Below, piece after piece: positions 34,395 through 34,610 of a stretch of 64,000 bases of DNA (its first letter is position 1; the number at the start of each line of letters is the position of its first letter). The DNA is taken from NCBI GenBank assembly GCA_009838735.1, contig VXQZ01000037.1, positions 22,127-86,126 on the forward strand. The letters are read 5' to 3'. A model generated the notes under the pieces. The model was not told the DNA's origin. It worked only from the letters and a program-made list of their open reading frames with translations, and did not search any database. The DNA is from Chloroflexota bacterium (GTDB lineage Bacteria > Chloroflexota > Dehalococcoidia > Bin125). A program made the position numbers and the translations under genes.

Positions 34395-34610
34395 TTTCCT
34401 GGCGCAGGAACCAGAGAAAAAGGCGAGCACCTCCAGTGTTTTGCGGGGTTTCATGAGTTTCGGGGTGGTTGGAAGTGGTTGATTTTGGTCGGCTGTGGTC
34501 GGGTTGGGGTGCACGGATTTGTTCGATCTTGTTCGGATTTGGACGGAATTGTGCGGTTGTGAGTCGGCGCTGGCGGTCAGGGGTCGGAAAGTTCGGGGGG
34601 TGTTCGGGTG
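34395..34610 (+). repeat. Phased 10-bp element, copy C
   Basis: CTCCAGTGTTTTGCGGGG box 34431-34448; TGGT at 34466, 34476, 34486, 34496; CG at 34490, 34500, then 14-bp step to 34514, 34524, 34534, 34544, 34554. Confidence 0.75.

What the first reader, a model, noticed from the sequence alone, without database searches (positions are those of the whole stretch)
34395..34610. Family of intergenic elements with 10-bp phased arrays and a conserved 14-bp step (copy C)
Three unlinked intergenic loci share box CTCCAGTGTTTTGC followed on the same strand by a G/T-rich array with 10-bp helical phasing. In C, TGGT occurs at 34466, 34476, 34486, 34496 and CG at 34490, 34500, then a 14-bp step to 34514, 34524, 34534, 34544, 34554, continuing at 9-11 bp to 34605. 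In A the steps are 14 then 10 x5; in B they are 10 x3, then 14, then 10 x3. Box-to-step distances are 48 (A), 67 (B) and 69 (C), so A is about two 10-bp units shorter. A and C also share GTGGTTGGAAGTGGTTGATTTTGGTCGG-like sequence. Phasing at the DNA helical repeat in non-coding DNA suggests an array bound on one face of the helix, or an RNA/DNA structure. I know of no matching named family.
Basis: seen in the sequence. Interest (0 to 1): 0.88.

Follow-up and report, generated by a model that had tools for sequence, protein, structure and literature searches.

The report
Self-sited DNA-binding genes, scattered arrays
In a group of sponge-associated Chloroflexota, a many-membered family of small DNA-binding proteins carries rows of 10-base repeats inside its own genes, and matching rows of repeats have been inserted, without the gene, next to dozens of unrelated genes, which looks like a previously undescribed scattered control or mobile system.

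Summary
In detail: identical box, 10-bp phased arrays beyond chance, 14-bp step in all three copies. They belong to a family of about 30-90 hits per genome in 8 of 15 species of one Dehalococcoidia genus, absent elsewhere in the class. The box is the left arm and loop of a conserved dyad. Array 1 has a class-specific word (TTCAGG, GTGGTTGG, GnnCAA, GTCCAG) in fixed register with the dyad; array 2 is GTTCGR; the 14-bp step is the seam between them, common but not universal. A LexA-like box with a -10 lies at the far end. Two of the window's sites are empty in most sister species; others hold another array class, or a gene, at the same site. That gene encodes a multi-paralog helix-turn-helix protein found only in element-rich species, and its coding sequence carries, in frame, the words seen in solo elements. 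A sister genus has the same gene-plus-array design with other words and no box. Best explanation: phased operator arrays for this HTH family, spread as gene-bearing and gene-less units. No Rfam, NCBIfam, PHROGs or PADLOC family names it; Pfam gives only a SEC-C motif. Binding and mobility are inferred.

The parts
34395..34610 (+). Finding as given: copy C, class II (GTGGTTGG) solo element
34377..34388 (+). copy C gene-proximal class II word GGTGGTTGGCAG
   Evidence: same word class on both sides of the dyad in the family
34386..34401 (+). copy C A/T-tract inverted repeat CAGAAAAATTTTCCTG
34425..34457 (+). copy C dyad (degenerate arms) with the conserved loop
   Evidence: model R1 hit, E 5.1e-8
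34462..34503 (+). copy C array 1, class II words at 10 bp
34510..34560 (+). copy C array 2, GTTCGR-type words at 10 bp, after the 14-bp seam
33059..34342 (-). CaiB/BaiF-like CoA transferase gene downstream of copy C (name from sequence resemblance, not from a database search)
   Evidence: gene call; orthologs in all 15 genomes
3528..4025 (-). copy A unit, insert between two genes that are adjacent (3-37 bp) in eight sister species
3683..3704 (+). copy A distal promoter-like GATACCATCAGAACATATGCGC (-10-like plus LexA-like half site)
3855..3891 (-). copy A array 2
3899..3935 (-). copy A array 1, class II
3936..3964 (-). copy A dyad ACGATCTCC-AGTGTTTTGC-AGGAGATCGT
3978..3994 (-). copy A T-tract
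4026..4673 (+). AlkA-like DNA glycosylase gene downstream of copy A (name from sequence resemblance)
12370..12382 (+). copy B proximal class I word TTTCAGGTTTCAG
12380..12398 (+). copy B A/T-tract inverted repeat CAGCGAAACTTTTTTTCTG
12411..12441 (+). copy B dyad
12451..12487 (+). copy B array 1, class I (TTCAGC/TTCAGG at 10 bp)
12494..12520 (+). copy B array 2 (GTTCGG at 10 bp)
12653..12673 (-). copy B distal promoter-like site: LexA-like GAACGCATGTCC followed by -10-like TATACGAT
   Evidence: enrichment in the family

Best explanation
Copies A, B and C are gene-less ('solo') members of a dispersed family whose other form is a gene for a small HTH protein. One unit reads, in transcription direction: LexA-like box with -10; either an HTH open reading frame or a short one; array 2; array 1; dyad; A/T-tract palindrome; then the neighbouring gene. 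Each array is a row of 10-bp operator words that puts bound HTH subunits on one face of the helix. The class-specific word of array 1 is read by the HTH subfamily whose own gene carries that word in frame; array 2 is read by a second HTH type that carries GTTCGR-type words. Shown: anatomy, class words on both sides of the dyad, fixed register, HTH/element co-occurrence, words inside HTH genes, empty and swapped sites between species. Inferred: that the HTH proteins bind the arrays, that binding controls transcription of the unit and of its neighbour, that LexA controls the promoter, and that units move (by an enzyme not identified).
For: Family size and limits. HTH genes present in 10 of 15 species; all 10 have strong element hits, against 1 of 5 without HTH genes (one hit in G007). 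Cognate words inside HTH genes: class I in C52, class II in C46, class III in C18, class IV GTCCAG in the C4 reading frame, array-2 words in C39:127882 and C40, all in the window's own genome. Solo word agrees on both sides of the dyad (I-I 58, II-II 15; I-II and II-I one each). Register: class I words at +10/20/30/40, class II at 9/19/29/39, class III at 12/22/32/42 from the dyad. Sister genus G017: 9 HTH genes each with a 10-bp array of other words (lag-10 0.71-0.99), plus 5 intergenic arrays (147 pattern sites, 0 for the control). 20 of 23 HTH type-B genes exceed the 95th percentile of other genes. Insertion: site A occupied in 6 species by three array classes and empty in 8; site B solo in 2, HTH gene in 3, near-empty in 8. 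LexA-like box enriched about 6-fold at 150-300 bp; the lexA upstream region has GAACGGACGTTC. Synonymous codons in class III HTH genes are most conserved over the element (0 of 118 windows as high). Fold: HTH plus helical hairpin at high confidence, linker with the array disordered.
Against: No binding data. No transposase or recombinase, terminal repeats or target duplication was found, so the means of spread is unknown. HTH genes and their arrays are linked, so shared words inside a gene could be plain descent; agreement of the solo copies is the stronger evidence. HTH type-A genes show high lag-10 in only 17 of 45, since their arrays are short. For class I the synonymous-codon test is weak (15 of 171 windows as high). 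No distinct LexA box was seen in copy C of this genome. Some copies lie between convergent genes, where control of a neighbour is hard to see. Word classes were assigned by rough patterns (21 of 146 unclassified).
Confidence: 0.6

Rival explanations
1. Mobile units only: the arrays are ends or spacers needed for spread (MITE-like, with the HTH gene as the autonomous partner or helper) and have no regulatory role in the host.
For: Empty sites and swaps of solo unit, HTH gene and array class at the same site; at site B the G014 HTH gene points the opposite way from those of G001/G005; tandem copies 160-255 bp apart; in-frame copies in genes.
Against: No catalytic gene, no terminal inverted repeats seen; orientation to genes is strongly biased, 68 to 4 in codirectional pairs, and fixed register and cognate words are not needed for mere spread.
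Confidence: 0.2
2. RNA element: the unit is transcribed from the LexA-like promoter and acts as a leader or small RNA (for instance C/A-rich with a pyrimidine-C step every 10 nt, a Rho-loading leader).
For: Promoter-like distal end, start codons and short frames; the transcribed strand would be C/A-rich and G-poor (visible).
Against: No Rfam match; no covariation in 144 hairpins; in HTH genes the arrays are translated; the loop is inverted relative to the array in 17 of 146 copies; class words sit on both sides of the dyad.
Confidence: 0.1
3. Upstream sites of ordinary regulators such as OmpR/PhoB-type response regulators, which use 10-11-bp direct repeats.
For: 10-bp direct repeats upstream of gene starts in 121 of 137 copies outside called genes.
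Against: Downstream genes share no evident pathway; the words track the HTH genes, which have no receiver domain.
Confidence: 0.05
4. Tandem repeats from replication slippage without function.
For: Near-perfect 10-bp repeats, especially in G017.
Against: The same register, words and dyad recur at unlinked loci and across species; the words match HTH subfamilies.
Confidence: 0.05

Closest known systems
Head-to-tail winged-HTH proteins on phased repeats (BldC, RdfS, Cox; PMC11963761)
   Same: One small HTH protein per about 9-10 bp of DNA, a row of subunits one helix turn after another
   Different: Here the predicted fold is a three-helix HTH plus a helical hairpin without a wing; words are well conserved and class-specific, the arrays lie inside the protein's own gene and in dozens of solo copies
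Phage small terminase and its pac site (PMC4737164)
   Same: HTH plus helical core; recognition region with direct repeats overlapping the small terminase gene
   Different: No significant structural match (best small terminase E = 1.6), no terminase large subunit seen among the neighbours looked at, many dispersed copies, ordinary bacterial neighbours
REP/RAYT and MITE families (own knowledge)
   Same: Dispersed short intergenic units with a dyad, and a related gene in the same genomes
   Different: Associated gene encodes an HTH protein, not a transposase; long phased arrays; several word classes
Rickettsia palindromic elements (own knowledge)
   Same: Repeated palindromic units found both between genes and in frame inside genes
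   Different: Here a cognate DNA-binding family carries the unit, and phased arrays make up most of it

Membership tests
Any curated RNA family (Rfam 15) | Match at or above the gathering score | tested here: not met
   0 matches in the window
Structured RNA | Compensatory changes in the stem | tested here: not met
   0.835 paired cells vs 0.828 shuffled, 144 hairpins;
Small terminase / pac | HTH plus helical oligomerisation core | tested here: inconclusive
   AF2 gives HTH plus helical hairpin, but Foldseek PDB/BFVD hits are not significant
Small terminase / pac | Candidate recognition site at or in its own gene | tested here: met
   Array and dyad in the HTH reading frame; binding itself not tested
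Small terminase / pac | Phage context with terminase large subunit | tested here: inconclusive
   Neighbours looked at resemble ordinary metabolic and repair genes; not examined systematically
OmpR/PhoB response regulators | Receiver domain plus winged HTH | tested here: not met
   Pfam/NCBIfam scans of the HTH proteins
BldC/RdfS/Xis wHTH | Winged HTH binding about 10-bp direct repeats head to tail | tested here: inconclusive
   Repeats met; no beta-wing in the model; binding not testable here
MITE / REP-RAYT | Transposase partner (DDE or Y1) | tested here: not met
   The partner found has only HTH and SEC-C matches; other transposases of the genome not surveyed
MITE / REP-RAYT | Terminal inverted repeats and target duplication | tested here: inconclusive
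   None seen by eye at site A; boundaries not resolved
Anti-phage defence system | PADLOC model match over the protein | tested here: not met
   Only SEC-C-tail and weak partial matches

The most novel reading that the evidence does not exclude
A new class of semi-selfish element: DNA-damage-induced HTH genes that carry their own phased operator array in frame, diversify array word and protein together, and spread both as whole genes and as gene-less arrays that put host genes under their control.
Probability: 0.35. Interest if true: 0.9.

Novelty: categorically new. Interest (0 to 1): 0.78.

Why it matters
It gives several protein/DNA-word pairs that appear to have diverged together in closely related species, a natural test of how an HTH family changes specificity, and it suggests that a regulator lacking any known mobility enzyme can spread its own binding array through a genome. 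It also accounts for many unannotated intergenic stretches in this group of Chloroflexota.

Tried and rejected
Rfam scan of the window: nothing. Covariation of the hairpin on 18 and on 144 copies: none, so an RNA stem was set aside. Viral contigs: four 17-mer hits without arrays, chance or unrelated; the Verrucomicrobium hit likewise. Terminase reading: suggestive layout but no significant fold or profile match. A coherent regulon: downstream genes look unrelated. An apparent truncated HTH intermediate on contig C22 is cut by the contig end. Synonymous-codon test for class I is weak; the class II part was not completed because the script stopped. Searches of the open literature gave no description of such an element; that library is partial. 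Two family scans failed on wrong coordinates; the NCBIfam one was repeated.

Full report
1. Observation. The box CTCCAGTGTTTTGC is present exactly at three places in the window and the arrays run at 10 bp as described, with the 14-bp step in each copy. Lag-10 self-match is 0.47, 0.64 and 0.50 for A, B and C; 1, 0 and 0 of 2000 dinucleotide shuffles reach it. In the whole genome (3.15 Mb, 56 contigs) the box has 7 exact and 12 one-mismatch sites, the reversed control none.

2. Anatomy. A covariance model of 35 positions finds about 25 copies at E below 0.001 in this genome and many in seven other species of the genus (29-89 hits at E up to 1), few or none in the rest and none convincing in other genera of the class. 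Public records with the sequence are Dehalococcoidia/Chloroflexota MAGs; that they are sponge-associated is my reading of the bin names, not a tool result. I collected 146 copies from ten genomes. The array side has lag-10 self-match 0.45, with further peaks at 20 and 30, against 0.28 on the other side. Array 1 carries a class word: I TTCAGG/TTCAGC, II GTGGTTGG, III GnnCAA/GnnCAG, IV GTCCAG; in classes I and II the same word recurs between the A/T-tract palindrome and the neighbour gene (I with I 58 times, II with II 15 times, one mismatch in each direction). The register to the dyad is fixed: class I words start 10, 20, 30 and 40 bases after it, class II 9, 19, 29, 39, class III 12, 22, 32, 42. 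Array 2, GTTCGR at 10 bp, follows after a seam that is often 14 or 24 bp but varies. The dyad arms are conserved as sequence, without compensatory change, and the loop is inverted relative to the array in 17 of 146 copies.

3. Place and orientation. Of 137 copies outside called genes, 121 lie upstream of a gene start with a fixed orientation, the dyad typically about 130 bp from the start codon; in codirectional gene pairs the bias is 68 to 4. Sixteen lie next to a gene's 3' end, 11 of them between convergent genes. Copy B is of this kind: its orthologous site in G006 lies between a small FmdB-like gene and the formyltransferase-like gene, and in the window the corresponding FmdB-like frame appears to end at 12337 (read). 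Downstream genes share no pathway as far as their sequences can be read. Beyond array 2, at 150-300 bp from the dyad, GAAC-N4-GTTC with at most one mismatch is about five to six times enriched (60 sites in three 50-bp bins against about 4 per bin elsewhere), followed in transcription direction by a TATAnnAT-like -10, and often a Shine-Dalgarno-like stretch and ATG with a short frame. The region upstream of this genome's lexA gene has GAACGGACGTTC, so a LexA box is plausible; control by LexA is inferred.

4. The gene-bearing form. Nine copies lie in frame inside genes for a 210-320 aa protein with an N-terminal HTH, most of them also with a C-terminal SEC-C motif. Paralogs of that protein are numerous: 20 matches in G014, 11 in G013, 5 in this genome, and none in G003, G004, G007, G008 and G012. 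All ten species with the gene have strong element hits; of the five without, only G007 has one at E 3.6e-7. Class II HTH genes carry GTGGTTGG in frame, class III genes GGTTCAATTTGTGA with the dyad CGATCTCC-N11-GGAGATCG, class I genes TTTCAGGTTCTTTCAGG. A second HTH type, including one gene on the window's own contig beyond the window, carries array-2 words (TGTTCGATTTTGGACGATTTTGTGCGG), and the gene on contig C4 carries GTCCAG words. So every main word class seen in this genome's solo elements has an HTH gene with that word in the same genome. In class III genes synonymous codons are more conserved over the element than in any other window of the gene (0.80 vs 0.73, 0 of 118), which points to selection on the nucleotides; for class I the test is weak. 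AlphaFold places an HTH (5-47) and a helical hairpin (49-77, 90-124) with high confidence and leaves the array-encoded linker disordered.

5. Independent test in a sister genus. G017 has no hit to the dyad model, yet its nine HTH paralogs examined each carry a 10-bp array of other words, such as TGTTCGATTG or TGATCGATTT, with lag-10 self-match 0.71-0.99. A search for four such units gave 147 sites, 0 for the control; they form about 17 arrays, of which 9 lie in HTH genes, 3 in the C-terminal part of other called genes and 5 outside called genes. The design of HTH gene with phased array is thus wider than the box.

6. Insertion history. Site A (copy A) is occupied in G000, G011, G002 and G014 by class II or class II-like units, in G006 by class I, in G013 by class III, with 400-530 bp between two genes that are 3-37 bp apart in G001, G003, G004, G005, G007, G008, G009 and G010. 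Site B (copy B) holds a class I solo unit in G000 and G006, a class III HTH gene in G001, G005 and G014, and a gap of -4 to 77 bp between the flanking genes in eight others; in G014 the HTH gene points the other way (two contig-end fragments). On a tree of three proteins the states are patchy, for example G002 empty at B beside G000 occupied, and G006 solo beside G014 gene. Repeated gain, or replacement by recombination, fits better than one old insertion; loss cannot be excluded at each site.

7. Mechanism. Most likely the HTH proteins bind their array words side by side on one helix face. In the HTH gene this would let the protein act on its own transcription; in solo units on the short transcript and the neighbour. 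Closest in working are head-to-tail HTH proteins such as BldC and RdfS, for which one subunit per about 10 bp or one turn is reported (PMC11963761), and small terminases, whose pac site with direct repeats overlaps their own gene (PMC4737164). Membership in either family is not shown. Binding, regulation and the means of spread remain to be tested.

8. Novelty. No Rfam, Pfam (above cut-off, apart from SEC-C), NCBIfam, PHROGs or PADLOC model names the system; homologs that bear a name are mostly called HTH-domain, SEC-C or hypothetical proteins of Chloroflexota. Each part resembles something known; a multi-class protein family that carries its own array in frame, with dozens of matching gene-less arrays inserted in the genome, I could not place in a known kind.

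Noticed in passing
window 56506-56746 (-): GTTCGG repeats with a 57-66 bp period and 10-bp sub-period in the N-terminal linker of a 538-aa lipoprotein-like gene (55232-56848), encoding QDRTASNAAEQSEQ-like repeats much like those of the G017 HTH proteins.
   Followed up: partly
window about 3580-3620 and 34659-34694: Other G/C-rich repeats (CCCCCCGCGAAGCGGGGGGAGATGCCGAAGGCAGAGGGGGG and CCCTCACCCTAACCCTCTCCCTCGGGGAGAGGGGA) that recur in several loci of the genus; a similar repeat is translated in frame inside an HTH gene (L110, SPPLGEARPALDAGMSR).
   Followed up: no
L296 and L297 (G014, G006), site C: Instead of an array unit: promoter-like site and a roughly 70-aa acidic frame (MTTVAQFTPDLLVSRLNDLISDAPGYVRKHASRLL...), followed by a T-tract; no NCBIfam match.
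   Followed up: partly
L397, L403 (G017): A different 390-410 aa protein family (MNDDTIQRLRDAYARRILEDLAGLG...) also ends in an in-frame 10-bp array.
   Followed up: no
17 of 146 copies, e.g. L023, L034, L047: Loop of the dyad inverted relative to the array while the arms stay; could be simple hairpin inversion or a switch.
   Followed up: partly
window 42-95: C-rich run (54 bases, 81% matches to C by TRF), possibly a sequence or assembly artefact.
   Followed up: no
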